Shown here one piece after another: positions 2 to 25,649 of a stretch of 27,620 nucleotides of DNA. The notes under the pieces were generated by a model. That model was not told the origin of the DNA, ran no database searches, and saw only the letters and a program-made list of their open reading frames with translations. This stretch comes from a virus, in the IMG/VR virus record IMGVR_UViG_3300043015_002664, positions 1 through 27,620 of that record. One strand, given 5' to 3'. Position numbers and translations under genes: made by a program. Positions within the stretch are counted from its first letter, which is position 1. Every line of letters starts with the position of its first letter.

Positions 2-835
2 AACTTCCGAGATGTAGAGATTCTTAAAGCACTAGATGAAAAATTTGAGTATATTGGTCTTGTAAAAAACCTATCACATAAAGGAAAACATAATTATGGT
101 GAGGTTTATGCCAATACTAAAACCCAGGATGGGGCTATTTCAGCCTATTTGTTAGGACAAAACATTGTTCCACCTGCTAGAGATAGAAATCCACTTACTA
201 AAAAGAATTATGCTGGTGGTTATCTATTTTGTCCTGCAGCAGGTCTTTACAAATATATGTTTGATGAGGATTTGACCTCACTATACCCTTCAATTATTAT
301 GTCTCTTAACATTGGTAAAGAAACATATGTTGGTAGGGTATTAGATCTTATGGATGATAGAAATAACCGTTTAGGACTAAATGATCTTAAAGCAATGGAT
401 CCTAGTAAGGAATTGTGTGTTGAAAATGTTCAACGTAAACAAAATTATATCCGTTGTGATAGAATTATTAAAACAATTGAAGATAATAATTTAGCTATTT
501 CAGCTAATGGAGTAATGTACCGTACTGATAAATCATCAGTTCTGTCAACAATACTTTCTAAATGGTTTGATGAACGAGTTGAATATAAGGGCTATATGAA
601 AAAAGCTTATAAAGCAGGTGATAAAGAAAAGGGAGCGTTTTGGCACCAACGTCAACACACAATGAAAATTTTGTTAAACAGTTTGTATGGCGCTACTGCT
701 CTTGGTAGCTTTAGATATGGTAGTGTAATTCTTAGCGAATCAATTACGCTTTCAGGACAACGAATTATTCAGGAATCAGCTTTGTGTGCTAATAGGCATA
801 TGAATAAAGTAATGCGTGGGCAGATAGAATTATGA
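2..835 (+). CDS. 43: Family B DNA polymerase gp43, upstream piece (5'-truncated by window)
   Basis: This is the upstream part of a T4-type replicative DNA polymerase. The frame is open from base 2, so the gene begins before the window and only 277 residues are visible; the ATG at 149 is internal. Motif A (DLTSLYPSII, bases 269-298) supplies the first metal-binding aspartate. Motif B (KILLNSLYG, 665-691) lies on the fingers helix that contacts the incoming nucleotide. The frame stops about 45 residues after motif B, before motif C with the second catalytic Asp pair. That motif is in the next gene, which overlaps by 4 bases (ATGA). The 3'-5' exonuclease domain expected upstream is outside the window. 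Family assignment is secure. Whether the break is real or a one-base sequence error is open. Confidence 0.92.
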   Translation, partial: NFRDVEILKALDEKFEYIGLVKNLSHKGKHNYGEVYANTKTQDGAISAYLLGQNIVPPARDRNPLTKKNYAGGYLFCPAAGLYKYMFDEDLTSLYPSIIMSLNIGKETYVGRVLDLMDDRNNRLGLNDLKAMDPSKELCVENVQRKQNYIRCDRIIKTIEDNNLAISANGVMYRTDKSSVLSTILSKWFDERVEYKGYMKKAYKAGDKEKGAFWHQRQHTMKILLNSLYGATALGSFRYGSVILSESITLSGQRIIQESALCANRHMNKVMRGQIEL

Positions 836-1758
836 AACATTTAGAAGAAACTCCTTGGTGGATTTGTGACGAAGGTGACTATAACTTTTGTGCCTACGTA
901 GACACAGACTCTAACTACTTTAATGCTGAACCTCTACTAAAACATTTATATCCTAACTTTGAGGAAATGAGTGAGGAAGAAAAGGACGATGTGTTAGAAC
1001 AAGTAGCTCTCAAATACCAAGATATTATTACTGAGTATTATGATGAGTTAGCACGTGATTGTTTTAATGTTCAAGAACACAGACTTGAAATGAAAACAGA
1101 ATGTGTTATTCGCTCAGCATATTTTAGAGCCACTCGTAGGTATGCTCAGTGGATTACTAAACAAGAAGGTATTGCTAAAGAATCACTTGATATTAAAGGA
1201 CTTGAATTTAGAAAAGCTAATTTTCCTCCTATATTTGGTAAGTTTTTTAATGATATTCTTGAAATGATTCTAAAGGGTACCGAACAAAAAGAAATTGATG
1301 ATTTAATTCTTAACTTTAGAAAAAAGATTATGTCTAAGGATACAGACATTACTTTACTTGGTAACCCAACTTCAGTAAAGACACTTAATGAGTATGTTGG
1401 ACGTAAACCAAGAGCGGGTGAGGTAATGACTGAAATTAAAAAAGGAGCACCTGCCAATGTTAAAGCAGCTATTCGTTATAATGATCTACTTAAATTTTGG
1501 AATATTAAAGGACATAGTGAGATTGTTCAAGGTGATAAAATTAAATGGATCTATTTAATAGATAACCCTTATAAAATAGACGCAATTGGTTTTCTAAGTT
1601 TTGATATGCCAGATAAGATGCGTACATTCCTAAATGACTATGCAGATAGAAAAAAATCATTTGAAACCATCCTTGAATCAAAATTAGAAAACTTTTATAA
1701 TGATCTAGGATGGACATTAAATTTAAATCCAAACATTAATAAATTCTTTAGCTTCTAA
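832..1758 (+). CDS. 43: Family B DNA polymerase gp43, downstream piece with motif C
   Basis: This 308-residue protein carries the rest of the polymerase. Motif C (YVDTDS, DTD at 901-909) lies about 24 residues from the start and supplies the catalytic aspartates that complete the palm, so neither piece could polymerise alone. The rest is consistent with lower palm and thumb (for example KTECVIRSAYFRATRRYA and DIKGLEFRKANFP). The C-terminal tail ends NKFFSF, which could be a clamp-binding peptide; that is inference. The ATG overlaps the upstream stop in a -1 register, so translational coupling is likely. I see no intein, intron or slippery heptamer at the junction. Inserting one base near 830 would fuse the two frames into one plausible protein, so an indel cannot be ruled out. 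Confidence 0.9.
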   Translation: MKHLEETPWWICDEGDYNFCAYVDTDSNYFNAEPLLKHLYPNFEEMSEEEKDDVLEQVALKYQDIITEYYDELARDCFNVQEHRLEMKTECVIRSAYFRATRRYAQWITKQEGIAKESLDIKGLEFRKANFPPIFGKFFNDILEMILKGTEQKEIDDLILNFRKKIMSKDTDITLLGNPTSVKTLNEYVGRKPRAGEVMTEIKKGAPANVKAAIRYNDLLKFWNIKGHSEIVQGDKIKWIYLIDNPYKIDAIGFLSFDMPDKMRTFLNDYADRKKSFETILESKLENFYNDLGWTLNLNPNINKFFSF

Positions 1759-2510
1759 TGATAGCAAAAAATACACTCCAATCTATTATCTCTAAGTATT
1801 ATCTTGGAGGTAAAGTAGAATCAGTTAAATGGGTAGTAGAAGATAAAAAATTACACATTGACTTTATGGCTCCTACTAAGGATATGATTGGTAGATTGTC
1901 ATGTAATAATTTCCCATTAGCTGAAAATGGTACTTTAGCTATTTTTAATACAACTCAACTTAATAGGCTGTTAAATGTATTAGCTGGTGATTTGATACTT
2001 GATGCTGAACGTACTAAAGCAATTCTTACTAAGCTCACTATTCAGGACGCTAAAGCATCTATCAATTATTCACTTGCTGACCCACTTATGATTCAAAAAG
2101 TGGGTGAGGTTGATGAGGATATTGATTGGAAAGTACAAGCAACACTTGAAAATGAGGATTTCCATACATTTGTTAGAGCAGCATCCGCTATTCAGGGAAA
2201 TGAAATTGTAACGCTTGCTGCTTCTAAAGATTCTATTGATACACCAATTATTAATTTTGTATTTGGTGAGCGTATGGAATTTTCAAACAAAGTAGAGTTT
2301 CAAGTAAATGCCTCATTTGGAGATGATGTTAGAGAGGATAATAAAATCCCATTTAATAGTGAAATGCTTAGAGAAATTTTTAATGCAAACAAAACGTCAG
2401 ATGAATGTCATTTGAGTTTTGTGGATGATGGTTTGCTTCGCCTTATCTTTACATCGCAAGATGAAGGTATAGACACAACATATTTTGTTGTACGAAAAGC
2501 AGATTACTAA
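1758..2510 (+). CDS. 45: Sliding clamp, T4 gp45-like
   Basis: This 250-residue protein is predicted to be the trimeric DNA sliding clamp that tethers the polymerase and, in T4, also activates late transcription. It is assigned from overall gp45-like character: an N-terminal segment like LQSIISKYYLGGKVESVKW, alternating beta-strand pattern, LNRLLNVLAGDLIL near residue 70, and an FVVRKADY end. Position supports it, since its ATG overlaps the polymerase stop (TAATG) and clamp-loader genes lie downstream. T4 gp45 is 228 residues, so the length fits. In T4 the order is 43-regA-62-44-45; here the clamp directly follows the polymerase. No regA-like gene is visible. Confidence 0.8.
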   Translation: MIAKNTLQSIISKYYLGGKVESVKWVVEDKKLHIDFMAPTKDMIGRLSCNNFPLAENGTLAIFNTTQLNRLLNVLAGDLILDAERTKAILTKLTIQDAKASINYSLADPLMIQKVGEVDEDIDWKVQATLENEDFHTFVRAASAIQGNEIVTLAASKDSIDTPIINFVFGERMEFSNKVEFQVNASFGDDVREDNKIPFNSEMLREIFNANKTSDECHLSFVDDGLLRLIFTSQDEGIDTTYFVVRKADY

Positions 2511-3771: not shown

Positions 3772-5684
<1,913 letters not shown>

Positions 5685-5693: not shown

Positions 5694-5963
5694 ATGTCTG
5701 AATTTCAAACAGTAGAGAACAAACAGCTTATTGCCCAGCGAGTCCCCCCAGGGGACCGCTGGCAATTAGTTGCTGACCCCTCAGGAACGGTACATGAATC
5801 GCTTACTGACACTTTAGAGACATACTTCCAAAAAACCAAGTTTAATGCTGCTTTTTATTTAGACCCTCTTGGAGGTGCCTTATACGCAGTTGAACGAACC
5901 GAAGTAGAAATCCAACCTGAACCAATCAAAACATTTGACTTTTATGGAGATGGCTATCAATAA
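5694..5963 (+). CDS. Hypothetical protein, 89 aa, between groEL and gp44
   Basis: I do not recognise this protein. It has no signal peptide or membrane segment. Visible features are PPGDRW near residue 18, a stretch of alternating hydrophobics (FNAAFYLDPLGGALYAVE) and an acidic, aromatic C-terminus. It starts 9 bases after the groEL stop, and its 3' end overlaps the clamp-loader gene by about 20 bases. It is therefore probably cotranscribed with both. Confidence 0.6.
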   Translation: MSEFQTVENKQLIAQRVPPGDRWQLVADPSGTVHESLTDTLETYFQKTKFNAAFYLDPLGGALYAVERTEVEIQPEPIKTFDFYGDGYQ

Positions 5964-6870
5964 TAGTTTGTGGGTAGAAAAATACCGATCACAAAAACTA
6001 GAGGATTATGTAGGGAATGATCACCTTAAGGATGTTATGGCTAAGTATATCACTAGCAATGACATGAACAATATGATCTTTTATGGACCTGCTGGTACAG
6101 GAAAGACAACGCTAGCTAAGCTTTTGGTTAATAACCTCAATTGTGAGTACCTTTACATTAACGCTAGTGATGAGAGAGGTATTGAAACTATTAGAGATAA
6201 AGTATCTGGGTTTGCTAGTACTATGTCGTTTAAACCACTTAAAGTAGTAATTCTTGATGAGGCTGATTTCCTTACAATCCAAGCACAGGCTTCTCTCCGC
6301 AACGTTATTGAGACATTCTCTAAGAGTACTCGGTTCATTTTAACTTGTAATTATGTAGAACGTATTATTGATCCACTTCAATCACGTTGTCAAGTACTTA
6401 AAATTGTACCCCCTAGTAAAGGTGAAGTAGCAAAGCATATTTTTAAAGTACTTTCTAACGAAAATGTTCAACATAGTACAGACCACCTTAAAGACCTAGT
6501 AAATCAATATTACCCAGATGTACGTAAAATGCTTAACGTATGTCAAATGTCTACTAAGGATGGTGAGTTGGAATTAGATAAACAAACACTTGTATCATCT
6601 AATTACGTTGATAAAGTAATTGAGCTATTGCCTAATAAAAAGTCATTTAAGCAAATTAGACAAGTAATTGCTGATTCCAATGTACAGGATTTTGAAGCGC
6701 TATATAAAGCTTTATACGAGCGTATGGATGAGTACACTTCACGTCCCGCGGAAGCTATTATTATTATTGAGGAATATATGTATCACTCTAATTTCCGAAT
6801 TGATAAAGAAATTAATGTGATGGCTTGTATTTCTAAACTACTTGATATCTCTGGTAAAATTGTTCTATAA
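5944..6870 (+). CDS. 44: Clamp loader large subunit, T4 gp44-like AAA+ ATPase
   Basis: This roughly 308-residue AAA+ protein is the ATPase subunit that opens and loads the gp45 clamp with gp62. The N-terminus LWVEKYRSQKLEDYVGN is the usual clamp-loader opening. Walker A is GPAGTGKTT (6085-6111), Walker B is VVILDEAD (6244-6267), sensor 1 lies in FILTCNY, and the SRC motif with its arginine finger is near 6380. The C-terminal part is the helical collar. T4 gp44 is 319 residues. Starts at 5944 (chosen) and 5950 are both ATG and equally plausible; a TTG at 5935 is less likely. The start overlaps the preceding gene. Confidence 0.93.
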   Translation: MEMAINNSLWVEKYRSQKLEDYVGNDHLKDVMAKYITSNDMNNMIFYGPAGTGKTTLAKLLVNNLNCEYLYINASDERGIETIRDKVSGFASTMSFKPLKVVILDEADFLTIQAQASLRNVIETFSKSTRFILTCNYVERIIDPLQSRCQVLKIVPPSKGEVAKHIFKVLSNENVQHSTDHLKDLVNQYYPDVRKMLNVCQMSTKDGELELDKQTLVSSNYVDKVIELLPNKKSFKQIRQVIADSNVQDFEALYKALYERMDEYTSRPAEAIIIIEEYMYHSNFRIDKEINVMACISKLLDISGKIVL

Positions 6871-7069: not shown

Positions 7070-7274
7070 TTTGAGCAAAACCACGTCTATTCCTAACTCT
7101 GAAGGAGGACATATTTTCCAACAAGGATTTGTCCTTCGTAAGGTTTCCCGTTTCATTACAGGAGGCACTGAAGACTCAGTACTGCCAATTCCTGTATTCT
7201 ACGACCCAGAAACTGGTAAAGTTTTGGGAGAGGGTTTGCCACCTGAACTCCGTAGTGAGTATGACACTATTTGA
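7032..7274 (+). CDS. Hypothetical protein, 80 aa, upstream of gp62
   Basis: I do not recognise this protein. It has a polar N-terminus (MTQQPQIDLSKTTSIPN) and a proline- and glycine-rich middle (GGTEDSVLPIPVFYDPETGKVLGEGLPPELRSEYD), suggesting a small, partly extended protein. The ATG at 7032 is used here; a second at 7047 is possible. It overlaps both neighbours and lies between the two clamp-loader subunit genes, so it is probably expressed with them. Confidence 0.6.
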   Translation: MKKSEMTQQPQIDLSKTTSIPNSEGGHIFQQGFVLRKVSRFITGGTEDSVLPIPVFYDPETGKVLGEGLPPELRSEYDTI

Positions 7275-7671
7275 TTGGTTAAAAGAATTAACAGGTAAAA
7301 AGCGAGATTGGGACTCCTTCACCGATAAGGAGAAGGAGTCCTTTAATCCTTATATGGTTAATCGTTTTTTATCTATGAATGAACCTTTTATTGAACTAGT
7401 TAACTATGTTCAAACCATTCCTTATACTGACAAGAAAAAATACTACACAGTATATTGTCAGTTACTTCCTAAACAAAATGTTTGGCTTAAATATATCAAA
7501 TCAAAAATGAAACAACCTACTATAGAATTAGTATCCGCTATTGCTGAAATTATGGAATGTTCTAGACGTGAAGCCGCTAATGCTGTTATGGTACTAGATA
7601 ATGATCATTTAGAAGAAGTATTGTATAAAGCAGGTTATCAGTCTAGTGAGGTAGCTAAAATGTTTAAGTAA
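7261..7671 (+). CDS. 62: Clamp loader small subunit, T4 gp62-like
   Basis: This 136-residue protein is the likely partner of gp44 in the clamp loader. Features consistent with the short gp62 forms in marine T4-like phages are the N-terminal FDWLKELTGKKRDW, then NPYMVNRFLSMNEPFIELVNYVQ and a C-terminal helical part with CSRREAANAVMVLD. T4 gp62 is longer (187 residues). I start at ATG 7261, although the frame is open from 7129, because upstream sequence belongs to the preceding gene and residue 1 onward fits gp62. Position close behind gp44 is the main support; the sequence itself diverges fast in this family. Confidence 0.75.
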   Translation: MTLFDWLKELTGKKRDWDSFTDKEKESFNPYMVNRFLSMNEPFIELVNYVQTIPYTDKKKYYTVYCQLLPKQNVWLKYIKSKMKQPTIELVSAIAEIMECSRREAANAVMVLDNDHLEEVLYKAGYQSSEVAKMFK

Positions 7672-8507
7672 TGGAACCTACTCCACATAAAATATTATGT
7701 ATACTTCCTGTATATAATGGGGAAGGAGTAGTAGATAAAGCTATATATTCTATTTTAAATCAATCTTATAAGCTATGGCACTTGGTAGTAATTGATGATG
7801 GGTCTAATGATAATACTGGAAAAATTTTAAACCAATTTTCTAACCATAATCAAGTTACAATATTAAATAATAAAACCAATAAAGGAACTTATTATAGTAT
7901 CAATAAAGCTCTCCATAAATTTAAAGATACTGATTGGACTTTATTTACTGTACATGGAGCTGACGATACATCCTCCCCAAATAGGTTTGCTTGTTTATTA
8001 GAGTGTTTTTATTCTTCTGATGTATTAGCAGGAGTGTCTGCTTGGAGTGGAAAAACATATATTCCTAGTAAAGTAGGTATTACTTATAAAATTGAAAAAC
8101 AAACTGCTAATTATGTTAAATTAAATATTGAATATCCTGTAAAACTAGCTTATATTAAAGGGGAAAAATTAGCAGGTAAAAATATGTTTGAAAATGGGTT
8201 AGCTATATACAGTAGAAAAGTTTTTAATTTAATAGGATATTTTGATTCTACTACTAGACACAGTGGAGATATAGAATATTTACACAGACTTTACGCTTTT
8301 TGTAAAAAAAATTCAACTTCATTTCAAATTAAAGCTTTAGATCCTGAAAAATATTCATATACTTATGTAACAGGGTTTCATAAAACTACTCAAAATTTAG
8401 GGCAAAAATATAATAAATATATAAAGGAAAAATATATCAATAAAACAGAATCTATCCATTTCACTTCTCAGACCCCAGAAGATTTTTATTATAATTTTAA
8501 TTTATAA
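7671..8507 (+). CDS. Family 2 glycosyltransferase (GT-A fold)
   Basis: This 278-residue enzyme is predicted to transfer a sugar from a nucleotide-sugar donor. The N-terminal half has the GT2 pattern: CILPVYNGEGVVDKAIYSIL, then VIDDGSNDNT (nucleotide binding), NKGTYYSINKAL, and a metal-binding DxD-like site in TVHGADDTSSPNR. The C-terminal half is less conserved and probably sets acceptor choice. No membrane segment is present, so it is likely cytoplasmic. It opens the glycan island; its ATG overlaps the gp62 stop (TAATG). Donor and acceptor cannot be read from the sequence. Confidence 0.85.
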   Translation: MEPTPHKILCILPVYNGEGVVDKAIYSILNQSYKLWHLVVIDDGSNDNTGKILNQFSNHNQVTILNNKTNKGTYYSINKALHKFKDTDWTLFTVHGADDTSSPNRFACLLECFYSSDVLAGVSAWSGKTYIPSKVGITYKIEKQTANYVKLNIEYPVKLAYIKGEKLAGKNMFENGLAIYSRKVFNLIGYFDSTTRHSGDIEYLHRLYAFCKKNSTSFQIKALDPEKYSYTYVTGFHKTTQNLGQKYNKYIKEKYINKTESIHFTSQTPEDFYYNFNL

Positions 8508-8512
8508 AAAAT

Positions 8513-9244
8513 ATGCCTCTCTATCCCTTAATATCATTAGCCCTTCCTACATGGAATTCTTCTCCTATACTTTGGTTAGCTCTTGAAGGATTATGTAACC
8601 AAAAAACCCAATACCCATGGGAGCTTATAGTATGTGAAGACCCCTCAGAAAAGTTTAGTGGGAAAGAATATTTTACTCCCTATATGGGTAGATTAAAAGA
8701 AGCAGGGTGTGTTAACTTTAAGTTTATAGATCTTGATGTTTGGGTTCCTTTAAGTTACAAATGGAAAATTTTAGCAGATTATATTTCTACTGAAAATTTT
8801 TTATTAGTAGCTTCTGATAATTATTCCCCCCCGGATAGAATTGAAATTACTTATGAGGCATTACAACAGCATGATTGGGTTGATTGGTCTGAGGGACTTT
8901 TTGTAAATCTTAATAATTTTGAACAAGCCAAATGGGTTAGACCAGATAAAAACAAAACAGGTTTATACATGGGTACTAAAACATCTTTCATTAAAGAATT
9001 ACAACCCCCTTACCCTTTAAGAGGAATTGATGGATGGATTAGGGATCAAAGAAATATTACAAACCGGTATCATATTTCTTCTTTTCCATTGGGAATTCAT
9101 ACTGACGGTGCTAATAATATAAGTCACCATCGAAAGAATCATTATACTGATCCAAAATCACCTTTTGTTCCATTTTTAGATAATTTGGAAGAAGTAATCC
9201 CTTTGCGTATTTTAGATAAATTAAAACAACAATTTAATTCTTAA
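8513..9244 (+). CDS. Glycosyltransferase-like protein (GT-A type)
   Basis: This 243-residue protein looks like a diverged GT-A glycosyltransferase. The start, ISLALPTWNSSPILWLALEGL, is the GT2 opening strand and helix, followed by WELIVCEDPSE in place of the usual DDGS segment. The metal-site region is FLLVASDNYSPPDR, with SDN in place of a classical DxD. Later HTDGANNISHHRKNHYTD is rich in His and Asp. It is soluble. It starts 5 bases after the previous glycosyltransferase and its stop overlaps the epimerase start. Activity is likely but not assured because the canonical DxD is altered. Confidence 0.65.
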   Translation: MPLYPLISLALPTWNSSPILWLALEGLCNQKTQYPWELIVCEDPSEKFSGKEYFTPYMGRLKEAGCVNFKFIDLDVWVPLSYKWKILADYISTENFLLVASDNYSPPDRIEITYEALQQHDWVDWSEGLFVNLNNFEQAKWVRPDKNKTGLYMGTKTSFIKELQPPYPLRGIDGWIRDQRNITNRYHISSFPLGIHTDGANNISHHRKNHYTDPKSPFVPFLDNLEEVIPLRILDKLKQQFNS

Positions 9245-10257
9245 TGAAGAAAATTATTCACATAGTAGGAACTAGACCTAATTATATTAAATTATTTCCT
9301 ACGTATTTAGCATTAAAAAATCATTTTGATAATATTATTGTAGATACCAATCAACATTATGATGATAATATGTCTAAAGTTTTTTTCGAGGAATTAAATC
9401 TTCCCCCTGCTAAGTATAATCTTAACATAGGATCGGGAACTCATGGGTACCAAACTGGGGAACTTATAAAACTAATAGAATCCTTATTGATTAAAGAAAA
9501 CCCTGATAGTGTAATAGTATACGGTGATGTAAATTCTTCCTTATCAGGGGCAATTGCTTCTGTAAAGTTAGGAATACCAATACTACATGTTGAAGCTGGT
9601 GCTAGAAGCTTTGATAGAGATATGCCCGAAGAAATCAATAGGATGCTTATAGATCAAATGTCTACAATTAACTTTTGCGCTCAGAAAACTCATGTTTCGA
9701 ATTTAATTAAAGAAAATATTTTTAATGGTAATTTAGTAGGAAATGTTATGGCAGACGCTGTTCACCTGTTAAAAAACCATTTAAAAAATCCATTAGGTTT
9801 TAAATATTATTTGTGTACTTTACATAGACCTTTTAATGTAGATTATCCTAATAGATTACATAAAATCCTTGCTAACTTAGAAACTTGGTCACATAAAGTA
9901 ATATTCCCGACTCACCCTAGAGTAAAAAATAAACTAACCAAAAATTATACAAATATAATTTTCACAGAACCTTTAGGATATGCTAATATGTTATCCCATA
10001 TAAAACACAGTGAAGGAGTTATATCAGATTCAGGAGGGGTACAATGTGAAACTACAATATTAAAGACCCCTCTTCAAACAGTCAGACCCTCAACGGAACA
10101 TACTGTAACTTTAGGTATGAATAATAAATTAGTTAGTGTAGATACCTTAAGTGAAGATAATTTTTTTATAAAAAATTACAATCTTCCTAAAATTTGGGAT
10201 GGTACCTCTTCCCAAAAAATATTTGAAACTATTTCTCAATTCTTAAAAACTAATTAA
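9244..10257 (+). CDS. UDP-N-acetylglucosamine 2-epimerase family (WecB/WbpI-like)
   Basis: This 337-residue GT-B-fold enzyme belongs to the family that inverts C2 of UDP-GlcNAc or UDP-GlcNAc(3NAc)A to the manno form. Seen motifs are VGTRPNYIK at the N-terminus, NMSKVFFEELNLP, IGSGTHGYQTGELI, VYGDVNSSLSGA, HVEAGARSFDRDMPEEINR (conserved catalytic-region acids), and SDSGGVQCETTILKTP with RPSTEHTVTLGMN near the C-terminus. It is slightly shorter than typical bacterial members (about 350-380). The family cannot be split into WecB and WbpI by eye. The WbpD-, WbpE- and WbpB-like genes downstream make WbpI-like use plausible. Overlaps join it to both neighbours. Confidence 0.9.
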   Translation: MKKIIHIVGTRPNYIKLFPTYLALKNHFDNIIVDTNQHYDDNMSKVFFEELNLPPAKYNLNIGSGTHGYQTGELIKLIESLLIKENPDSVIVYGDVNSSLSGAIASVKLGIPILHVEAGARSFDRDMPEEINRMLIDQMSTINFCAQKTHVSNLIKENIFNGNLVGNVMADAVHLLKNHLKNPLGFKYYLCTLHRPFNVDYPNRLHKILANLETWSHKVIFPTHPRVKNKLTKNYTNIIFTEPLGYANMLSHIKHSEGVISDSGGVQCETTILKTPLQTVRPSTEHTVTLGMNNKLVSVDTLSEDNFFIKNYNLPKIWDGTSSQKIFETISQFLKTN

Positions 10258-10448
10258 TGGATAGCATAGTTACCTCAGTTATAGAACAATTTAAAACTCG
10301 ATCAGAGTTTGGTGAAAAAAAGTATGGTGTTAATATGGATCGTGAAGATCTAGATTTTAGTGAGTGGGTTACTCACATGAAAGAAGAACTTATGGACGCT
10401 ATACTTTATTTAGAAAAATTAGAAAAATTAAAAAAATTAAACAAATGA
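10257..10448 (+). CDS. MazG-like mini-protein, 63 aa
   Basis: This short helical protein resembles a single conserved segment of phage MazG-like NTP pyrophosphatase-related proteins: FGEKKYGVNMDREDLDFSEWV followed by MKEELMDAILYLEKL. In the full family EExxD-type helices bind Mg and nucleotide, but only one such helix (EELMD) is clear here, so enzymatic activity alone is doubtful. The C-terminal end is a Lys/Leu repeat that could be a helical tail. It overlaps the epimerase stop and the next start. It could be a small regulator or a subunit. Confidence 0.5.
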   Translation: MDSIVTSVIEQFKTRSEFGEKKYGVNMDREDLDFSEWVTHMKEELMDAILYLEKLEKLKKLNK

Positions 10449-11011
10449 ACAACCAAAATCCTAAAATCTTTATTACAGGATGTGCTAAAACAGGTACTAC
10501 TTTAGTTAGAAGACTTTTTAATGCTTTTGACTTAAAAGTATATAATAAGGCTGAGGTCCCCTTTAAACAATTTATAACCCCCAATTTCCCTTCCCAGGTA
10601 GCAAAAAGAGCAGATGGGATTTATAGTGGTGAATTAAGCACAGAATTAATTCAATGGTACATAGAGCAAATTCAAAAACATAATATAAAAATTGTAAATG
10701 TTACTAGAAAAGAAGCTGATACTTTAAAAAGTTATAACGGTTATGTAACAAAATCTAGATATGATGGTTGTGTACAACAAATGGTTCAATACCCTGAATA
10801 TATTACATGTAATGTTAGATATGAAGAATTAATGGTAAATCCTGATGCCGTGCAAAATTATGTAGCTGAAGTTTTAAACTTAAAAATCATTCATAAATGG
10901 TCTGATTACCCCACTTGGTTTACAGATACAGATGATGACCCAAACCTCAAACTTTCCAAGTTTAAAATTGATTATTCTTTAAGAAAAATAGGTGCACCTA
11001 AAAATGCCTAA
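10445..11011 (+). CDS. Sulfotransferase-like P-loop protein
   Basis: This 188-residue protein resembles PAPS-dependent sulfotransferases, which add sulfate to sugars or other acceptors. The N-terminal IFITGCAKTGTTLVRRLFNAF has the 5'-phosphosulfate-binding loop (KTGTT). CNVRYEELMVNPDAVQ resembles the RYEDL-x-x-P segment that follows the 3'-phosphate site in the family. It is shorter than most sulfotransferases (250-300), so it may be a minimal form or a related kinase-like P-loop fold. ATG 10445 is chosen over the open frame from 10364 because the P-loop lies near the N-terminus. It overlaps the mini-protein before and the nuclease after. A role in sulfating the phage glycan is inference. Confidence 0.65.
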   Translation: MNNQNPKIFITGCAKTGTTLVRRLFNAFDLKVYNKAEVPFKQFITPNFPSQVAKRADGIYSGELSTELIQWYIEQIQKHNIKIVNVTRKEADTLKSYNGYVTKSRYDGCVQQMVQYPEYITCNVRYEELMVNPDAVQNYVAEVLNLKIIHKWSDYPTWFTDTDDDPNLKLSKFKIDYSLRKIGAPKNA

Positions 11012-11927
11012 AAAACCCCAAATACTAAAAGAGATACAGAATAAAGAATTGCCTGAGGTAAACTACGCTTACCAAAAAACAATTTCTTATTCACAAATGT
11101 CTATGTATAGAAGTTGCCCACACAAGTGGGCACTTCAATATAAAGATGGACATTATGATGATTCTCCTTCAATCCACTTTACATTTGGTACTGCTATGCA
11201 CGAGGTAATCCAAGATTGGCTCACAGTGTTATATGAAGAATCAGCTACTAAAGCAGACCAAATCAACTTAGAGGAACAATTCCAGGAAAAGTTTATAGGA
11301 CTCTATAAAGAAAGTTATTCTAAAAACAGTGAAACTCACTACTCGTCACCCGAAGAACTTAGAGAGTTTTTTGAAGATGGAGTAGCAATCCTTGATTTTA
11401 TTAAGAAAAAACGAAACCAATACTTTAGTAAGCGTGGTTGGCACCTTGCAGGTATTGAGTTACCAATTGTAATGAACGTTGGTAGAAACTTAATGTACAA
11501 GGGTTTTATTGATTTAGTATTATACCATGAACCTACAAATAAGTTTTATATCTACGATATAAAAACGTCTACTAGGGGATGGAATGCTAAAGCCAAATCA
11601 GACGAAAATAAGCAAATGCAACTTGTGCTTTACAAGAAGTTTTTTAATGAACAATATGGAATTCCACTTGAAAATATTGAAGTAGAATTTTTTATTGTAC
11701 GTAGAAAAGTTTGGGAAAATAGTGATTACCCAATTTATAGAGTACAACAACACAAACCAGCTGCAGGTCGTAATAAACTTAAAAAAGCAGATAAAATACT
11801 TGATGAGTTTATTACTGAGTGTTTTACACCTAAAGGAAAGTATCAAGAAAGAGAACACCCTAAAGTAATATCTTCTCTATGTAAATGGTGTCCTTTTAAT
11901 GGTAATAAAGAATTATGTAATAAATGA
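11004..11927 (+). CDS. PD-(D/E)XK nuclease, Cas4/AddB-like, probably Fe-S containing
   Basis: This 307-residue protein looks like a RecB-family exonuclease. Motifs in order are [14 protein letters not shown] (motif with Cys), FGTAMHEVI (GxAxHE), [10 protein letters not shown] (catalytic Asp), IYDIKTS (D-x-K) and [11 protein letters not shown] (motif with Gln). A C-terminal [13 protein letters not shown] cluster plus the N-terminal Cys gives four cysteines, as in the 4Fe-4S nucleases Cas4 and AddB. No CRISPR array or Cas1/Cas2 is in the window, so a CRISPR role has no support here. DNA end processing in phage recombination or packaging is plausible. ATG 11004 is used; GTG 10992 would add four residues. 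It overlaps its neighbours on both sides. Confidence 0.85.
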
Positions 11928-12316
11928 TACACGAAACAGCAAACATATACCCTTCGGCCCAAATAGATTCTACTAGTAAAGTAGGAGCATTTGCTGAAAT
12001 TGGACATAAAGTAATAATAGGTAAAAATTGCTCTATTGGATTTGGGGCTTTTATCCCTGAAAATGTAGAAATAGGTGATAATGTTTTTATAGGTCCTGGA
12101 GTAGTATTTACTAATGACAAATATGCTCCTTCTAAAGGTAAGTGGAGAGAAGATCCACCAACAAAAGTTCAAGATAACGTGACTATTGGAGCTAATTCTA
12201 CTATCTTACCCTCATTAATCATAGGAACCAACTCTAGAGTAGGAGCAGGTTCTGTAGTTACTAAAAATATCCCTAAAAACTCAATTGTATACGGAAACCC
12301 AGCAAAATGCCAATAA
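11924..12316 (+). CDS. Left-handed beta-helix N-acetyltransferase (WbpD/WlbB-like)
   Basis: This 130-residue protein is built of hexapeptide repeats ([LIV]-G-x4), the mark of trimeric left-handed beta-helix acyltransferases. It matches the family acetylating the 3-amino group of UDP-GlcNAc(3NH2)A: start [13 protein letters not shown], then [36 protein letters not shown] (the VFTND segment near the acceptor and acetyl-CoA sites), [11 protein letters not shown] and the end YGNPAKCQ. It is shorter than Pseudomonas WbpD (about 190). Overlap with the aminotransferase and its place next to a WbpB-like dehydrogenase strongly favour this assignment over a generic sugar O-acetyltransferase. Confidence 0.8.
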
Positions 12317-13125
12317 TTGTAAGAAATATTTTCGAAGATTACGTAAAAGAACGTTTTGATCTTCAAGACTGTATAGCAGTAAACAATGGGAGTAGTGCTA
12401 TTATAGCACCTTTGTGGTCTATGGATTTAAAACCAGACGATGAAGTAATAACAACTCCTTTTACTTTTATATCAACAGTTACTTCAATAGTAATTGCGGG
12501 TGCTAAACCTGTATTTGTAGATATAAATGAGGGTAATTATTTAATCAACCCAGACCTTATCGAACAAGCTATTACTCCTAAAACTAAAGCAATTATGCCG
12601 GTCCACTTGTTTGGGCAAGTGTGTGATATGGATAGGATAAATGAAATAGCTAAAAAACATAACTTAGTAGTTATTGAAGATACATCCCAATCATTTGGGG
12701 CTAAATCAGAAGGTAGAATGGCGGGAATGATGTCTGATGTAGGAACTTTTTCATTCCAAAAAACTAAAAACATCAATACGTTTGAAGGAGGAATGATTTG
12801 TATCCCTAAAGACTCCAAACTAGATGCTGATAAAATTAGAGCTATCTGTAACCAAGGACAAACCAGCAAATACCACCACGAGTATTTAGGATTTAACTTT
12901 AGAATGGCTGAACCGCTTTGCCTATTAGCTTATAGCCAAATGAAGCTCCACATGAAAGGTATTGAAGCAGAACTTGGATTTAGAACTATTAAAAATGGTC
13001 ATTATCCTTACGTTGCTTATGATCAACCTGCTATTAAACGTTTAGGAATTACAGGTGACTGCCCTATAGCTGAAAAAACAGCTAAGTTTATTAAGGAAAA
13101 TTATTTTAAGGGAACCACAACATGA
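12307..13125 (+). CDS. DegT/DnrJ/EryC1 aminotransferase, shortened (WbpE-like)
   Basis: This PLP enzyme is predicted to transaminate a 3-keto UDP-sugar with glutamate. Recognisable are [65 protein letters not shown] and [16 protein letters not shown] with the PLP lysine. LGFNFRMAE supplies the conserved Asn. At 272 residues it is far shorter than family members (about 360). Compared with WbpE from memory, the N-terminus lacks about 35 residues. A further roughly 55 residues are missing between MKGIEAEL and [12 protein letters not shown]. The key residues survive, so it may still be active. It overlaps its neighbours by 10 and 4 bases. Confidence 0.8.
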
Positions 13126-13985
13126 AAAAATTTGCTTTAATAGGAGGAGCAGGGTATATAGCTCCAAGGCACGTTCAAGCCATACAACACACAGGCAATG
13201 ACTTAGGAGCCATTTTAGATCCATATGATGGTGTAGGATATATTGACAAGTATTTCCCTAAAGCATCATATTTCAGTGAAGCAGAACGATTCGATAGACA
13301 CCTCTACAGACATAAAAAAGAATATGATTATGTTTCTATTTGTTCCCCTAATTATTTACATGATGCCCATATCCGTTTAGCATTGCGAAATGAATGTGAT
13401 GTCATTTGTGAAAAACCTTTAGTCCTTAATACTCGACATTTAGATTCTCTCCAAGAATTAGAAAATGAAACAGGTAAATCTATCAATACTATCCTTCAAC
13501 TTAGGTACCACGACGCTATTATAAATCTTAGGGAAAAATACAAAAATACTAAACAGATTCATAAGGTTACTTTAGATTATATTACTCCTAGGGGTAAATG
13601 GTATGATTACTCGTGGAAAGGTAATCTAGACAAATCCGGGGGGGTAACATGTAATATAGGAATCCATTTTTTTGATATGCTTATTTGGATTTTTGGGGAT
13701 GTTATAAGTTTTGATGCTATTAATACTGCTACTTCTTCCAAAGGCAAAGTCTATTTAGAACACGCTGAAGTGGACTATAACCTAAGTATCAACCAGGAGG
13801 AATTACCTTGGGATGAGTGGAAACCTTACAGAAATATAACTATAGATAATAATCCCTTAGAATTTTCTGAAGGGTTTACTGAGTTACATAATAGAAGTTA
13901 TGAACAAATATTAAATGGGAATGGGTTTGGAATTAAAGATGTTTATCCTTCTATAGCCTTAGTAGATAAATTAAAAAGAATATAA
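13122..13985 (+). CDS. NAD-dependent UDP-sugar 3-dehydrogenase (WbpB/WlbA-like, Gfo/Idh/MocA)
   Basis: This 287-residue protein is close to the WbpB/WlbA type, which oxidises C3 of UDP-GlcNAcA to give the 3-keto substrate of the aminotransferase. The NAD-binding GGAGYIAPRHVQAI, VSICSPNYLHDAHI, the catalytic-lysine motif VICEKPLV, the ILQLRYHDAII segment, KWYDYSWKGN and NIGIHFFDMLIWIFGD are seen; the last part LEFSEGFTELHNRSYEQILNGNGFGIKD also matches remembered WbpB sequence. Length fits the lower end of the family (about 290-340). It overlaps the aminotransferase by ATGA and is the last gene before a 40-base gap. The pathway context makes this one of the firmest assignments in the island. 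Confidence 0.9.
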   Translation: MKKFALIGGAGYIAPRHVQAIQHTGNDLGAILDPYDGVGYIDKYFPKASYFSEAERFDRHLYRHKKEYDYVSICSPNYLHDAHIRLALRNECDVICEKPLVLNTRHLDSLQELENETGKSINTILQLRYHDAIINLREKYKNTKQIHKVTLDYITPRGKWYDYSWKGNLDKSGGVTCNIGIHFFDMLIWIFGDVISFDAINTATSSKGKVYLEHAEVDYNLSINQEELPWDEWKPYRNITIDNNPLEFSEGFTELHNRSYEQILNGNGFGIKDVYPSIALVDKLKRI

Positions 13986-14000
13986 TTTTTCTAACTCCAT

Positions 14001-14012
14001 ACATATTTATAT
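14001..14012 (+). promoter_or_regulatory. ATATTTA-type promoter-like box before the RHH gene
   Basis: ACATATTTATAT ends 13 bases before the ATG at 14026, in a 40-base gap between the WbpB-like gene and the RHH gene. An almost identical 11-base string (ACATATTTATA) precedes the HNH gene at 25815. No clear -33 element is seen. Confidence 0.35.
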
Positions 14013-14025
14013 CAAAATATATGCT

Positions 14026-14211
14026 ATGAAAAAAGATATGACCCTAACAAGTGTAAAAATTCAAAGTGAGTTATTTGAAGAATTTAAGATCGCATGTGTA
14101 AGACATAAGTTTTCTTTCCAAAAACTTGCTGATCGTTGTGTTCATTTGTATCTCACTGATGAAGAGTTTAAAAAGCAAATACACAACCACAACAATTTAG
14201 ATTTAAAATAA
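14026..14211 (+). CDS. Small ribbon-helix-helix-like protein, 61 aa
   Basis: The protein has the layout of a ribbon-helix-helix DNA-binding domain: a short strand (LTSVKIQ, about residues 6-12), a helix (ELFEEFKIACVRHK), a turn and a second helix (FQKLADRCVHLYLTDEEFKKQI). RHH dimers bind operators through the paired strands, so this may be an autoregulator or an island regulator. It has its own promoter-like box. The ATG fits an A-rich leader. It is followed by 20 bases and the next glycosyltransferase. No target can be read from the sequence. Confidence 0.55.
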   Translation: MKKDMTLTSVKIQSELFEEFKIACVRHKFSFQKLADRCVHLYLTDEEFKKQIHNHNNLDLK

Positions 14212-14231
14212 AAAACGTATTAAAAAACAAA

Positions 14232-15686
14232 ATGGTTACGAAAATGGAAGGATACGTTCCTAAGGAGGAGCGTAAAAAAATCCTATTAATGTGTGATGAT
14301 CTTAGAACACACTCTGGGATAGGTACAATTGCTAAAGAAATAGTACTCCATACTGCCCACAGATATAATTGGGTACAAGTAGCAGCTGCTATTGAACACC
14401 CTGAAAAAGGCAAACGTTTAGATATTAGTGAAGATACTAACAAACATTTGGGAATAGACGATGCTTCTATAATTTTATACCCATCAAGTGGGTATGGAAC
14501 CCCAGATTTAGTTCGACAACTACTTCAAGTTGAAAAACCTGATGCTATTTTCTTATTTACTGACCCCAGATATTGGGTTTGGTTGTTTCAAATTGAAAAT
14601 GAGATAAGAAAACAAATTCCTATAGTTTATCTAAATATTTGGGATGACTATCCTGCTCCCATGTACAATAAAACTTATTATGAATCATGTGATGCTTTAC
14701 TTGGAATTTCTAAGCAAACTGTAAATATTAACAATTTAGTACTTGGGGATAAAGCAAAAGATAAACTTATTTCATATGTTCCTCATGGGCTTAATCATAA
14801 AATGATGTTTCCTATTGATGAATCATATGAACAATATGATAAATTTAAAGAATTTAAACAAAACCTATTCCAAGGTAAAGAATATGATTTTGTAGCTCTT
14901 TACAATTCTAGAAATATTAGACGTAAACAAGTACCTGATACTATTTGGGCTTTTAAACAATTTGTTGACAAGCTATCCTTAGAACAAGCTAAAAAGTGTG
15001 CCTTAGTTCTTCACACCCAACTTGTAGACCCTAATGGAACAGACCTCCCAGCTGTCGTAGAAATGCTTTGTGGGAATGATCCTGAAAGGTATAATGTTAT
15101 TTTTTCTTCAAATAGGTTAGATACCCAACAAATGAATTGGTTATACAATTGTACAGATGTTCAAATCCAACTTACTTCTAATGAAGGATGGGGTCTTAGT
15201 TTAACAGAAGCAATTTTATGTGGTAATCCTATTATTGCTAATGTTACAGGAGGTATGCAAGACCAAATGAGGTTTGAAGATGACAATGGTAATTGGTTTA
15301 CACCTACTAAAGATCTACCATCTAACCATACTAAAAAATACACTAAACACGGAGAATGGGCGTTCCCAGTTTTCCCCACTAGTAGATCAATAGTAGGTTC
15401 ACCTGCTACCCCTTATATTTTTGATGATAGATGTGAGGCGAGCGATGCTGCTGATCAATTATATAATGTTTATCAATTAGATAAAGCTGAAAGAAAGTCT
15501 CGAGGGTTAAAAGGTAGAGAATGGGCTCTAAGCGATGAAGCAGGACTCACCTCCGAAAAAATGTCTTATAAAGTAATAGAAAACATTGATACCTTATTAG
15601 ACACCTGGAAACCCAGAAAAAAATACGAATTAATTAAAGTAACTAATCAAAGCCCAAAGGCTGTACCTCATAATCTAGTATATTAA
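14232..15686 (+). CDS. Glycosyltransferase, GT-B fold (GT4-like)
   Basis: This 484-residue protein has the two-domain GT-B layout. The N-terminal domain starts KKILLMCDDLRTHSGIGTIAKEIV, with a glycine-rich acceptor-side loop. The C-terminal domain contains FVALYNSRNIRRKQVPDTIWAFKQF, LVLHTQLVDPNGTD and the nucleotide-binding NEGWGLSLTEAILCGNPIIANVTGGMQDQ, which is the E-x7-E-type GT4 signature. It is soluble. Starts at 14232 or 14244 are both ATG; the upstream one sits in an AAAACAAA leader. The stop overlaps the next gene. The pair of adjacent GT-B enzymes suggests successive sugar additions. Confidence 0.87.
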   Translation: MVTKMEGYVPKEERKKILLMCDDLRTHSGIGTIAKEIVLHTAHRYNWVQVAAAIEHPEKGKRLDISEDTNKHLGIDDASIILYPSSGYGTPDLVRQLLQVEKPDAIFLFTDPRYWVWLFQIENEIRKQIPIVYLNIWDDYPAPMYNKTYYESCDALLGISKQTVNINNLVLGDKAKDKLISYVPHGLNHKMMFPIDESYEQYDKFKEFKQNLFQGKEYDFVALYNSRNIRRKQVPDTIWAFKQFVDKLSLEQAKKCALVLHTQLVDPNGTDLPAVVEMLCGNDPERYNVIFSSNRLDTQQMNWLYNCTDVQIQLTSNEGWGLSLTEAILCGNPIIANVTGGMQDQMRFEDDNGNWFTPTKDLPSNHTKKYTKHGEWAFPVFPTSRSIVGSPATPYIFDDRCEASDAADQLYNVYQLDKAERKSRGLKGREWALSDEAGLTSEKMSYKVIENIDTLLDTWKPRKKYELIKVTNQSPKAVPHNLVY

Positions 15687-16987
15687 TGAAACCAACATTT
15701 GTAATAAGTTGCCCTATTGACACCTATTCGGGTTATGGGGCACGTTCTCGAGATCTAGTTAAAGCTATTATTGAACTAGATAAGTATGATGTTAAAATTT
15801 TACCACAAAGATGGGGGAACACTCCATGGAATTTTATAAAAGACCATCAAGAAGAATGGGGTTTTCTAACTGAACATTTATTAAGTGCTCCTCAATTGCC
15901 TAAACAACCTGAAATTTGGGCACAAGTAACTGTTCCTAATGAATTCCAAGCCGTAGGAAAATATAATATAGGATTTACTGCGGGTATTGAAACTACCACC
16001 TGTGCTCCTCAATGGATAGAAGGTGTAAATAGGATGGACCTCACCTTAGTTTCTTCAGAACATGCTAAATATGTTTTTACTAGTACTAGGTTTAACCAAG
16101 AAAATAATGGTAAATTAGTAGGTGAAGTTTTTGTAAAAAAACCTATAGAAGTTTTACTTGAAGGAGCGGATTTAACTAAATATTTCCCATCCAAAGAAAA
16201 AAGCTCTATTGACTTAAGCAATATTAAAGAATCATTTGCTTATCTATTTGTAGGTCATTGGATGAAAGGAGACATAGGTGAAGACAGAAAAAATGTAGGA
16301 TTGCTTGTAAAATTGTTTTATGAAACTTTTAAAAACAAGAAAAATGTTCCTGCCTTAATTCTTAAATGTAGTGGGGCAGGCGCTTCCTACATAGACAGAG
16401 AAACTATTCTTGATAAAATAAACCAGGTTAAATCTACAGTTAAAGCTGATACTTATCCCAATGTTTATCTTCTCCACGGTGAGTTTTCAGATAAAGAAAT
16501 GAATGATCTTTATAATCACAAAAAAGTAAAGGCAATGGTTTCTTTAACTAAAGGTGAAGGATTTGGCCGTCCATTACTTGAGTTTAGCTTGACTAAAAAA
16601 CCTATTATTACTACTAATTGGAGTGGGCATATAGACTTTTTAGACCCTAAATTTACAACATTAGTAGGGGGTGAAGTTAAACAAATTCATTCTAGTGCTG
16701 TAGTTCAGGATATGCTAATCCCAGAAAGTGGGTGGTTTGCTCCTGATGTTCAAGAAGTAGTTAACCATTTACAAAATATGTTTGTTAATTACAAAGGGTA
16801 TGAAAAAGGAACCATGCTTCAGTATCATAAAAGTAAAAACAATTTTAGTTTTACATCAATGAAAAAGACCCTTAATTCTTATTTAGATATTTACCTCCCC
16901 GAATTTGAAATGGTGGAAAATATTAAACTAGAATTACCTAAATTAAATTTACCAAAACTTAAAAAATTAGAAAATGTCGAAGGATAA
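15686..16987 (+). CDS. Glycosyltransferase, GT-B fold (GT4-like), second copy
   Basis: This 433-residue protein is a second GT-B enzyme. It begins PTFVISCPIDTYSGYGARSRDLVKAI. The Rossmann-like C-terminal domain carries YLFVGHWMKGDIGEDRKNVGLLVKLF, LILKCSGAGAS and the donor-binding TKGEGFGRPLLEFSLTKKPIITTNWSGHIDF. Its C-terminal tail is a Leu/Lys/Pro repeat (LELPKLNLPKLKKLEN) of unknown purpose. It overlaps the previous glycosyltransferase (TAATG) and the next gene by 14 bases. Sequence is not close to the first copy, so this is not a recent duplication. Donor and linkage are unknown. Confidence 0.85.
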   Translation: MKPTFVISCPIDTYSGYGARSRDLVKAIIELDKYDVKILPQRWGNTPWNFIKDHQEEWGFLTEHLLSAPQLPKQPEIWAQVTVPNEFQAVGKYNIGFTAGIETTTCAPQWIEGVNRMDLTLVSSEHAKYVFTSTRFNQENNGKLVGEVFVKKPIEVLLEGADLTKYFPSKEKSSIDLSNIKESFAYLFVGHWMKGDIGEDRKNVGLLVKLFYETFKNKKNVPALILKCSGAGASYIDRETILDKINQVKSTVKADTYPNVYLLHGEFSDKEMNDLYNHKKVKAMVSLTKGEGFGRPLLEFSLTKKPIITTNWSGHIDFLDPKFTTLVGGEVKQIHSSAVVQDMLIPESGWFAPDVQEVVNHLQNMFVNYKGYEKGTMLQYHKSKNNFSFTSMKKTLNSYLDIYLPEFEMVENIKLELPKLNLPKLKKLENVEG

Positions 16988-17426
16988 TTTAACTGTTTGT
17001 CCCAGATGTGGGAGTGATGCTTGCTACGAAACTGATTTAGGAGCAGATTATAAAATAAATATGTGTTATGGTTGTGGGTTTACAACTAACACTTTAATGA
17101 CAAACGAGAGCCAGTTCTTAGAAGAACAACTTGAAGTTCTTCCTGAACTTTACAAAGATTTAGTTTATGAAGATGAAAATGGACAACATTGGATGCCTTC
17201 TACTATTAATAACCCTGAACAAGGGATGATTTTTATTGATGGTACCTCAGTAGATGATTGGAGGTGGGCTGCTTGTAAAGGAATAGAACTTACCCAAGAA
17301 GAAAAAGAAAGATTCCCAGAAGATGCTACTCACAAAATGGACATGAGTACCGTAAAATATTTTGCTGAGCGTGATTTTATAGAAGCTCTTGATTATATTG
17401 GAGTTTTCGAAAATAAAGAACAATGA
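16974..17426 (+). CDS. Zinc-ribbon protein of unknown function, 150 aa
   Basis: The N-terminal 35 residues form a zinc ribbon: CPRCGSDAC, then about 15 residues later CYGCGF, giving four zinc ligands. The rest (EEQLEVLPELYKDLVYEDENGQHWMPSTINNPEQGMIFIDG, VDDWRWAACKGIELTQEEKERFP) is acidic with tryptophans and is not a family I recognise. It overlaps the neighbouring glycosyltransferase genes by 14 and 4 bases, so it is an integral operon member. A role as a regulator or adaptor in glycan synthesis is possible only by position. Confidence 0.65.
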   Translation: MSKDNLTVCPRCGSDACYETDLGADYKINMCYGCGFTTNTLMTNESQFLEEQLEVLPELYKDLVYEDENGQHWMPSTINNPEQGMIFIDGTSVDDWRWAACKGIELTQEEKERFPEDATHKMDMSTVKYFAERDFIEALDYIGVFENKEQ

Positions 17427-18049
17427 AAATAAGCTACGCAATTCCTGTTTGTAATGAGTGGAAAGAGATAAAATACCTTATGGATTATCTTTTTAAACAC
17501 AAGCGTGAACAGGATGAAATTGTAGTACAATGTGATAAGGGTAATACTACTTCTGAAGTATATGGAGTACTGAAGCATTACTCTGAATTCAATATGCCCT
17601 ATAAACTTATTGAATTTCCATTGAATGGTGATTTTGCTGCGTTTAAAAATAATTTAAAAGACAATTGCTCTGGGGATTATATCTTTCAAATTGATGCCGA
17701 TGAATATCCTGAGGAATATTTAATGAGTACTATTGAGTGGTTAATAAAAAATAACCCGGGTACAGATGTGTTTTGGGTCCCTCGTATTAATACTGTTAAA
17801 GGGTTAACTCAAGAACATGTAAACAAATGGGGGTGGAATGTTTGTCCTAAAGGAAGAGTAAATTTTCCCGATTACCAATGTAGAATTCTTAAAAATGTAA
17901 AAAGGATTAAATGGAAAAACAAGGTTCATGAAGTACTCACAGGACACAAAACCGAATCCAAACTCCCAGCCAATGATGAGTTTTGTATTCACCATCCCAA
18001 AACTATAGAGCGTCAAGAAAAGCAAAATCAATTTTATAGCACCTTATGA
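17423..18049 (+). CDS. Family 2 glycosyltransferase
   Basis: This 208-residue GT-A enzyme starts ISYAIPVCNEWKEIKYLMDYL, the usual GT2 opening. FAAFKNNLKDNCSGDYIFQIDADEYP contains the DAD metal-binding triad followed by the family's E. CRILKNVKRIKWKNKVHEVLTG resembles the W...HE acceptor-side motif seen in LPS-type and SunS/WaaE-like GT2 enzymes. It is short but complete for a single-domain GT2. The ATG overlaps the previous stop. It is probably cytoplasmic. Confidence 0.85.
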   Translation: MKISYAIPVCNEWKEIKYLMDYLFKHKREQDEIVVQCDKGNTTSEVYGVLKHYSEFNMPYKLIEFPLNGDFAAFKNNLKDNCSGDYIFQIDADEYPEEYLMSTIEWLIKNNPGTDVFWVPRINTVKGLTQEHVNKWGWNVCPKGRVNFPDYQCRILKNVKRIKWKNKVHEVLTGHKTESKLPANDEFCIHHPKTIERQEKQNQFYSTL

Positions 18050-25225: not shown

Positions 25226-25311
25226 GCCCGGGTGGTGGAATTGGTAGACACGACAGACTTAAAATCTGTTTCGCCGAACGGTGAGTGCGGGTTCGAGCCC
25301 CGCCCCGGGTA
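25226..25311 (+). tRNA. tRNA-Leu (anticodon UAA)
   Basis: Acceptor arm GCCCGGG pairs with CCCGGGT (first pair G-U). The anticodon stem CAGA/TCTG carries the loop CTTAAAA, giving anticodon TAA (reads UUA). A long variable arm and GGTTCGAGCC T arm are as expected for tRNA-Leu. CCA is not encoded. Confidence 0.95.
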
Positions 25312-25319
25312 CTAGATAT

Positions 25320-25543: not shown

Positions 25544-25554
25544 CACAACTATTT

Positions 25555-25628: not shown

Positions 25629-25649
25629 CAGCGTGTGAGGCGAATTAAA

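What the first reader, a model, noticed from the sequence alone, without database searches (positions are those of the whole stretch)
665..909. DNA polymerase broken between catalytic motifs B and C, at an ATGA overlap
Motif A and motif B are in one frame and motif C (DTDS) is in the next, joined by a 4-base overlap. The two pieces would have to assemble to be active. Split T4-type polymerase genes are known, to my recollection, in Aeromonas phages, but there the pieces are separated by other DNA. Here the junction lies in the palm, between a helix and the catalytic strand. One missing base near 830 (TTAATG read as TTATG) would fuse the frames into a continuous protein, so a sequencing or assembly indel is a direct competing explanation.
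Basis: partly seen in the sequence, partly recalled or inferred. Interest (0 to 1): 0.7.

Follow-up and report, generated by a model that had tools for sequence, protein, structure and literature searches.

The report
Phage DNA polymerase in two proteins
A whole lineage of uncultured, mostly marine T4-like phages (probably of Flavobacteria) makes its replicative DNA polymerase as two separate proteins, cut between two active-site motifs, so the two halves must meet to rebuild the catalytic centre; the break is real and conserved, not a sequencing error.

Summary
In detail: motifs A and B of a T4-type (family B) DNA polymerase lie in one frame (2-835) and motif C in the next (832-1758), joined by ATGA. 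The indel explanation is refuted. Of 168 non-redundant related loci from many metagenomes, every one is split at the same place. In 43 the seam is the same 4-base overlap, including the closest relative L072 (about 90% DNA identity, dS about 0.6). In 7 the pieces abut (-1 to +20 bp), and in 118 about 200-1900 bp of other genes lie between them. Both pieces are under strong purifying selection. Piece 2 always starts at the same codon, with a conserved new leader (MKHLE-TPWWICD). The large genomes carry one copy of each half and no intact polymerase B. The seam maps to RB69 gp43 residue 608|609, just before catalytic D621/D623. This differs from the Aeromonas 43A/43B split (residue 512) and the RM378 split (exonuclease|polymerase). 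A fused relative (L297, 888 aa, same gene order) is the outgroup, so one ancient fission is most likely. There is no intein, no conserved slippery site, and no homing endonuclease in the window seam. Best reading: an obligate two-chain replicative polymerase, a new variant of a known kind. Activity and assembly were not tested.

The parts
2..835 (+). piece 1 of a T4-type family B DNA polymerase (end of exonuclease domain, palm with motif A, fingers with motif B); its N-terminal ~284 aa lie outside the window
   Evidence: Pfam DNA_pol_B 4e-23, phrog_262 6e-62; full homologue in L072 is 561 aa and folds like RB69 gp43
269..292 (+). motif A, DLTSLYPS
   Evidence: read from sequence; motif A pattern found in 161 of 168 loci
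665..691 (+). motif B, KILLNSLYG
   Evidence: read from sequence; motif B pattern found in 162 of 168 loci
832..835 (+). ATGA seam: start of piece 2 overlaps stop of piece 1
   Evidence: same 4-base overlap in 43 of 168 non-redundant loci; flanking bases vary, the overlap does not
832..1758 (+). piece 2 of the polymerase (motif C hairpin, rest of palm, thumb, C-terminal tail)
   Evidence: phrog_262 positions 565-852 and phrog_1918; model of homologue L068 matches RB69 gp43
832..870 (+). new conserved N-terminal leader of piece 2, MKHLEETPWWICD
   Evidence: M1, H3, P8, W9, I11, C12, D13 invariant in 14 divergent members; same start codon position in all 168 loci
895..912 (+). motif C, YVDTDS (catalytic aspartates)
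   Evidence: read from sequence; motif C pattern found in 167 of 168 loci
1738..1755 (+). C-terminal NKFFSF, resembling a clamp-binding tail
   Evidence: position and sequence only; inference from T4 gp43, not tested
1758..2510 (+). sliding clamp (T4 gp45-like) gene directly downstream
   Evidence: phrog_223, DNA polymerase processivity factor, 1e-4
5935..6870 (+). clamp loader large subunit (T4 gp44-like)
   Evidence: phrog_168, 3e-84
7129..7671 (+). clamp loader small subunit (T4 gp62-like)
   Evidence: phrog_225, 5e-13

Best explanation
This is an intact, functional replicative polymerase of a T4-type phage, encoded as two polypeptides. Piece 1 (about 560 aa) carries the N-terminal and exonuclease domains, motif A and the fingers with motif B. 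Piece 2 (308 aa) carries motif C and the thumb. The gene split once in the ancestor of a large clade of uncultured phages, in the palm loop that leads from the helix after motif B to the motif C hairpin. The two chains must assemble non-covalently to bring the catalytic aspartates of motif A (piece 1) and motif C (piece 2) together. In this window the two frames are probably translated from one mRNA by stop-start coupling at ATGA. Shown: the split, its conservation, selection on both halves, and the absence of an intact copy in the large genomes. Inferred: assembly, activity, translational coupling, and the role of the new leader in the joint.
For: 168 of 168 non-redundant loci are split at the same codon position, with ATG (164) or GTG (4). 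Window versus L072: dN/dS about 0.036 for piece 1 and 0.014 for piece 2 at dS about 0.6. Catalytic motifs are kept on both sides of the break. 118 loci have 200-1900 bp of other genes between the halves, so two chains are unavoidable there. Large records (101-173 kb) hold one piece 1 and one piece 2, no second polB and no family A polymerase over the cut-off, alongside a T4-type gp23 capsid in three of five tested. The seam maps to RB69 608|609. The piece 1 model is confident except residues 355-376, just before and at the start of motif A; the piece 2 model is confident in the thumb but not in residues 1-36 with motif C, as expected if the palm sheet needs both chains. The fused outgroup L297 has the same gene order.
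Against: No biochemical evidence that the halves bind or polymerise. The complex could not be modelled here. The piece 2 alignment was shallow (14 rows, pLDDT 65) and was folded for the relative L068, so low confidence near motif C may be a method effect. No isolate of this clade is in the phage collection searched.
Confidence: 0.9

Rival explanations
1. Sequencing or assembly indel in a normal single-frame polymerase gene.
For: Only one base separates the two frames; a one-base difference would rejoin them.
Against: 43 non-redundant loci from separate metagenome assemblies have the same ATGA seam although their flanking sequence differs. 118 loci have genes between the halves. Piece 2 has its own conserved start and leader.
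Confidence: 0.01
2. Programmed -1 ribosomal frameshifting makes a fused polymerase from the ATGA form.
For: The two frames overlap in the sense that a -1 shift needs.
Against: No X XXY YYZ heptamer in 40 of 43 ATGA seams, and those in the other three are not shared across the clade. Close relatives with genes in the seam cannot use it. The -4 overlap comes and goes on the tree, at least 9 changes.
Confidence: 0.04
3. A split intein or trans-splicing rejoins the two pieces covalently, as in N. equitans PolB or phage MIJ3 PolB.
For: Inteins occur in related polymerases: an apparent intein before TDS in LR756508 and one in the exonuclease part of L086.
Against: Piece 1 ends only a few residues after its last helix, and piece 2 starts about 23 residues before motif C. 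There is no room for intein domains on either side, and none in the seam inserts examined.
Confidence: 0.01
4. The fission was caused by a homing endonuclease that invaded the gene and was later lost from most members (a rival about origin; it does not conflict with a working two-chain enzyme).
For: GIY-YIG endonuclease genes sit in the seam of L019, L063, L086 and L280, and an HNH-type gene in L038 and L046. Piece 1 tails of several of these carriers are altered. Precedent: Aeromonas phage 25 (PMC2988022).
Against: Only 6 of 168 loci carry one. Two different endonuclease families are involved, which looks like repeated later invasion. Parsimony leaves the ancestral seam as ATGA or as the small ~87-aa gene, not as an endonuclease.
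Confidence: 0.2
5. Decaying pseudogene, with replication done by another polymerase.
For: A frame break is how decay starts.
Against: Strong purifying selection on both halves, motifs kept, no alternative polymerase found in the large genomes searched.
Confidence: 0.01

Closest known systems
Aeromonas phage 44RR / 25 split gene 43 (43A, 43B)
   Same: T4-type gp43 encoded as two polypeptides; 43A and 43B of phage 25 co-purify and have polymerase activity (PMC2988022, citing Petrov et al. 2010)
   Different: Cut in the fingers between motifs A and B (RB69 residue 512); there motifs B and C stay on one chain, here they are parted
Rhodothermus phage RM378 (Far-T4) polymerase
   Same: T4-type polymerase of a Bacteroidetes phage in two genes
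   Different: Split between exonuclease and polymerase parts, genes ~57 kb apart in the record
Methanothermobacter split PolB and Nanoarchaeum equitans split PolB
   Same: Natural two-gene family B polymerases (Kelman 1999 and Choi 2006, cited in PMC4104785)
   Different: Cellular archaeal PolB3; attributed to faulty intein excision or rejoined by a split intein (PMC4104785). From memory the Mth cut also lies near motif C; its exact site was not tested here
Pseudomonas jumbo phage MIJ3 PolB
   Same: Phage PolB in two ORFs
   Different: Split intein with HNH endonuclease at the break (PMC6892783); no intein here
Microcystis phage Mel-JY01 polymerase (PP395634)
   Same: Nearest polymerase in the annotated phage collection, 34-36% identity
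   Different: One 848-aa chain with a short loop at the seam position

Membership tests
T4-type (gp43) family B DNA polymerase | motifs A, B and C of family B polymerases | tested here: met
   DLTSLYPS, KILLNSLYG, YVDTDS in window and relatives
T4-type (gp43) family B DNA polymerase | sequence and fold match to RB69/T4 gp43 on both pieces | tested here: met
   piece 1 E 8e-22 by sequence; piece 1 homologue by fold E 1.5e-30, TM 0.76; piece 2 homologue by fold E 1.5e-7; piece 2 by sequence alone found no related solved structure but matches phrog_262
T4-type (gp43) family B DNA polymerase | T4-type replisome neighbourhood (clamp, clamp loader) and gp23 capsid in the genome | tested here: met
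   window clamp and loader genes; gp23 in three large relatives' genomes
T4-type (gp43) family B DNA polymerase | polymerase and exonuclease activity | not testable with these tools
   needs expression of both pieces
Aeromonas-type split gp43 (43A/43B) | cut in the fingers before motif B (RB69 ~512) | tested here: not met
   cut maps to RB69 608
RM378-type split (exonuclease | polymerase) | cut between exonuclease and palm | tested here: not met
   exonuclease and motif A are on one chain in L072; RM378 arrangement
Split-intein polymerase | intein N- and C-domains at the break | tested here: not met
   tails too short on both sides; none in the seam inserts examined
Programmed -1 frameshift gene | conserved slippery heptamer before the overlap | tested here: not met
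   absent in 40 of 43 seams
Homing-endonuclease-interrupted gene | endonuclease gene between the halves | tested here: not met
   none in the window's seam; present in 6 of 168 relatives

The most novel reading that the evidence does not exclude
The split is itself useful. The polymerase is assembled from two separately made and separately inherited subunits, and the ~87-aa QSIR protein encoded between the halves in most members is a third, assembly or regulatory partner. Halves are exchanged between lineages, as the conflicting trees of the two pieces suggest.
Probability: 0.1. Interest if true: 0.75.

Novelty: new variant of a known kind. Interest (0 to 1): 0.55.

Why it matters
It shows that the catalytic palm of a replicative family B polymerase can be cut between motifs B and C, parting the two halves of the metal-binding site, and still be kept across a large phage lineage. 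It gives many natural designs of a split polymerase, which could be tested directly and could be useful for controlled or split enzymes. It also gives a clear series (fused outgroup, ATGA seam, seam with genes) for studying how gene fission proceeds. A practical point: gene callers and annotation may list such polymerases as truncated or broken.

Tried and rejected
Indel or assembly error: rejected by relatives. Programmed frameshift: no conserved slippery site. Intein or trans-splicing: no intein sequence at the seam. Membership in the Aeromonas-type split: different site; PHROG 2062/1918 look like the two halves of that other split. Vibrio phages whose hits list two features under the match (H8): checked in F86, a normal single polymerase gene overlapped at its end by another ORF. 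Immutovirus (Flavobacterium phage, shares the GroES/GroEL and glycosyltransferase neighbourhood): has a family A polymerase, so no help. DNA-level search of isolate phages: no match. Recombination exactly at the seam: the two pieces' trees conflict (AU test), but identity along the gene shows scattered mosaicism, not a breakpoint at the seam; the groups were chosen after seeing the trees, so the p-values are indicative only. Ancestral seam state: parsimony cannot choose between ATGA and small-gene-in-seam. The rate analysis used a simple pairwise method (NG86).

Full report
What was claimed and what is there. The window starts inside a T4-type polymerase gene. Frame 2..835 carries motif A (269-292) and motif B (665-691) and stops at 833-835. 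Frame 832..1758 starts with ATG at 832 and carries motif C (895-912). They overlap by ATGA. Both frames are family B polymerase and match consecutive parts of one PHROG (phrog_262, 314-566 and 565-852 of 856).

Not an artefact. Searching IMG/VR with each piece gave 74 and 80 loci, a profile gave 80 more of 570 confirmed relatives, and the genome collection gave 7. After removing duplicates there are 168 loci that hold both pieces; all are split. Piece 2 starts at the same codon position in all (ATG in 164, GTG in 4). In 43 the seam is the ATGA overlap, in 7 the pieces abut (-1 to +20 bp), in 118 they are separated by about 200-1900 bp. The nearest relative, L072, is about 90% identical in DNA, differs at dS about 0.6, and has the same seam. 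An indel in this contig cannot explain that.

Both halves are under selection. Against L072 the dN/dS is about 0.036 for piece 1 and 0.014 for piece 2. Against seven other relatives, with or without genes in the seam, it is about 0.05-0.12. Motif patterns A, B and C are found in 161, 162 and 167 of 168 loci; some of the shortfall is from pieces cut off by contig ends. The first 13 residues of piece 2 (M-H-----PW-ICD) are invariant at seven positions in 14 divergent members. Fused polymerases such as RB69, T4 and Mel-JY01 have a shorter loop there.

Where the cut is. Aligned to RB69 gp43, the cut lies at residue 608|609, 13 residues before catalytic D621 (D621/D623 numbering from general knowledge). 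In the AlphaFold model of the L072 piece 1 the last helix runs to residue 555 of 561 and the chain ends there. Piece 1 matches RB69 gp43 structures (E 1.5e-30). The piece 2 model, made for the relative L068, matches RB69 gp43 too (E 1.5e-7). When folded alone, piece 1 is uncertain only at 355-376, just before and at the start of motif A, and piece 2 is uncertain mainly in residues 1-36, with motif C, and 94-139, while its thumb is confident. This is what one expects if the palm sheet forms only when the chains meet, but the piece 2 alignment was shallow and the inference is weak.

It is the phage's replicative polymerase. The window continues with a clamp, GroES/GroEL and both clamp loader subunits. 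In nine large relatives' records (101-173 kb) piece 1 occurs once (in one record it is reported as two stretches of one frame), and no family A polymerase passes the cut-off. Piece 2 occurs once in each of 12 records tested. Three of five genomes tested carry the T4-type capsid gp23. Contigs of this clade were binned with Flavobacteriales/Flavobacteriaceae genomes in four of seven cases, which suggests Bacteroidetes hosts. T4-like phages of marine Bacteroidetes have been proposed (PMC7198788), without mention of a split polymerase.

What sits in the seam. Of 118 gapped loci, 107 carry a small ~87-aa gene (QSIR...KMLKQGG) of unknown function. Others carry a DUF6165 gene, a mannose-6-phosphate-isomerase-like cupin, a cytidylyltransferase, a PLP enzyme, an Smr-like gene, and in six cases a homing endonuclease. 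In three ATGA genomes (G001, G006, G007) the small gene lies about 8-11 kb from piece 2. So genes move into and out of the seam without harm to the polymerase.

Origin. A natural fused relative exists: L297, 888 aa, 55% and 47% identical to the two pieces of split relatives, with the same order polymerase, clamp, GroES, GroEL, clamp loader. In the tree the fused sequences are separated from all 168 split ones by one change, SH-aLRT 94; L297 is a long branch, so its exact place is less sure. The ATGA state needs at least 9 changes on starred branches (14 in all). Parsimony leaves the first seam as ATGA or small gene. A one-base change of frame that created ATGA in the loop is the simplest start. 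Homing endonuclease invasion is possible but is seen in few members and in two unrelated families.

How it works, most likely. The two frames are translated from one message, here by stop-start coupling, and the chains associate to form the palm. Frameshifting is unlikely because 40 of 43 ATGA seams have no slippery heptamer. Protein splicing is unlikely because no intein parts flank the seam. Precedent for function: phage 25 gp43A and gp43B co-purify and are active (PMC2988022).

Relation to what is known. Split archaeal PolB is known too (PMC4104785). The site between motifs B and C in a phage, the lack of any intein, and the conservation across a large clade appear to be new; the literature search was limited to open papers. 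I therefore rate it a new variant of a known kind.

A further hint. Trees of the two pieces conflict in the window's own clade, so the halves have partly separate histories. Identity along the gene shows scattered mosaicism, not a breakpoint at the seam, so I do not claim that subunit exchange is special to the split.

Noticed in passing
seams of 107 of 118 gapped loci, e.g. L033, L120, L007; elsewhere in G001 121458-121643, G006 32824-33000, G007 41462-41644: A conserved ~87-aa protein family (QSIR...FF[KR]KMLKQGG) with no Pfam match sits between the two polymerase halves in most members and about 8-11 kb away in some ATGA genomes.
   Followed up: partly
L019, L063, L086, L280 (GIY-YIG) and L038, L046 (HNH): Homing-endonuclease-like genes inserted in the polymerase seam; in L019, L038, L046 and L086 (and in L060, which has no endonuclease) the tail of piece 1 is replaced by another sequence.
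   Followed up: partly
L086, piece 1 (946 aa): An apparent ~378-residue intein in the exonuclease domain, ending ...VKTHN|CDYFDIPYL.
   Followed up: partly
L157 (LR756508.1): A 484-kb uncultured phage polymerase with an apparent intein directly before TDS of motif C.
   Followed up: no
window 3772-5684 and 7671-21333, compared with L158: GroES/GroEL followed by a long glycosyltransferase cluster resembles the gene order of Flavobacterium phage immuto, which has a family A polymerase instead: possibly a replication module swap.
   Followed up: partly
window 25226-26409: Eight tRNA genes (Leu, Arg, Ile, Lys, Thr, Asn, Tyr, Val) with a cysteine-rich, HNH-like ORF (25853-26263) among them; the ORF has no Pfam match.
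   Followed up: partly
L003, L014, L017, L012, L019 and the window: Trees of piece 1 and piece 2 conflict strongly within the window's clade, pointing to recombination inside the polymerase region.
   Followed up: partly
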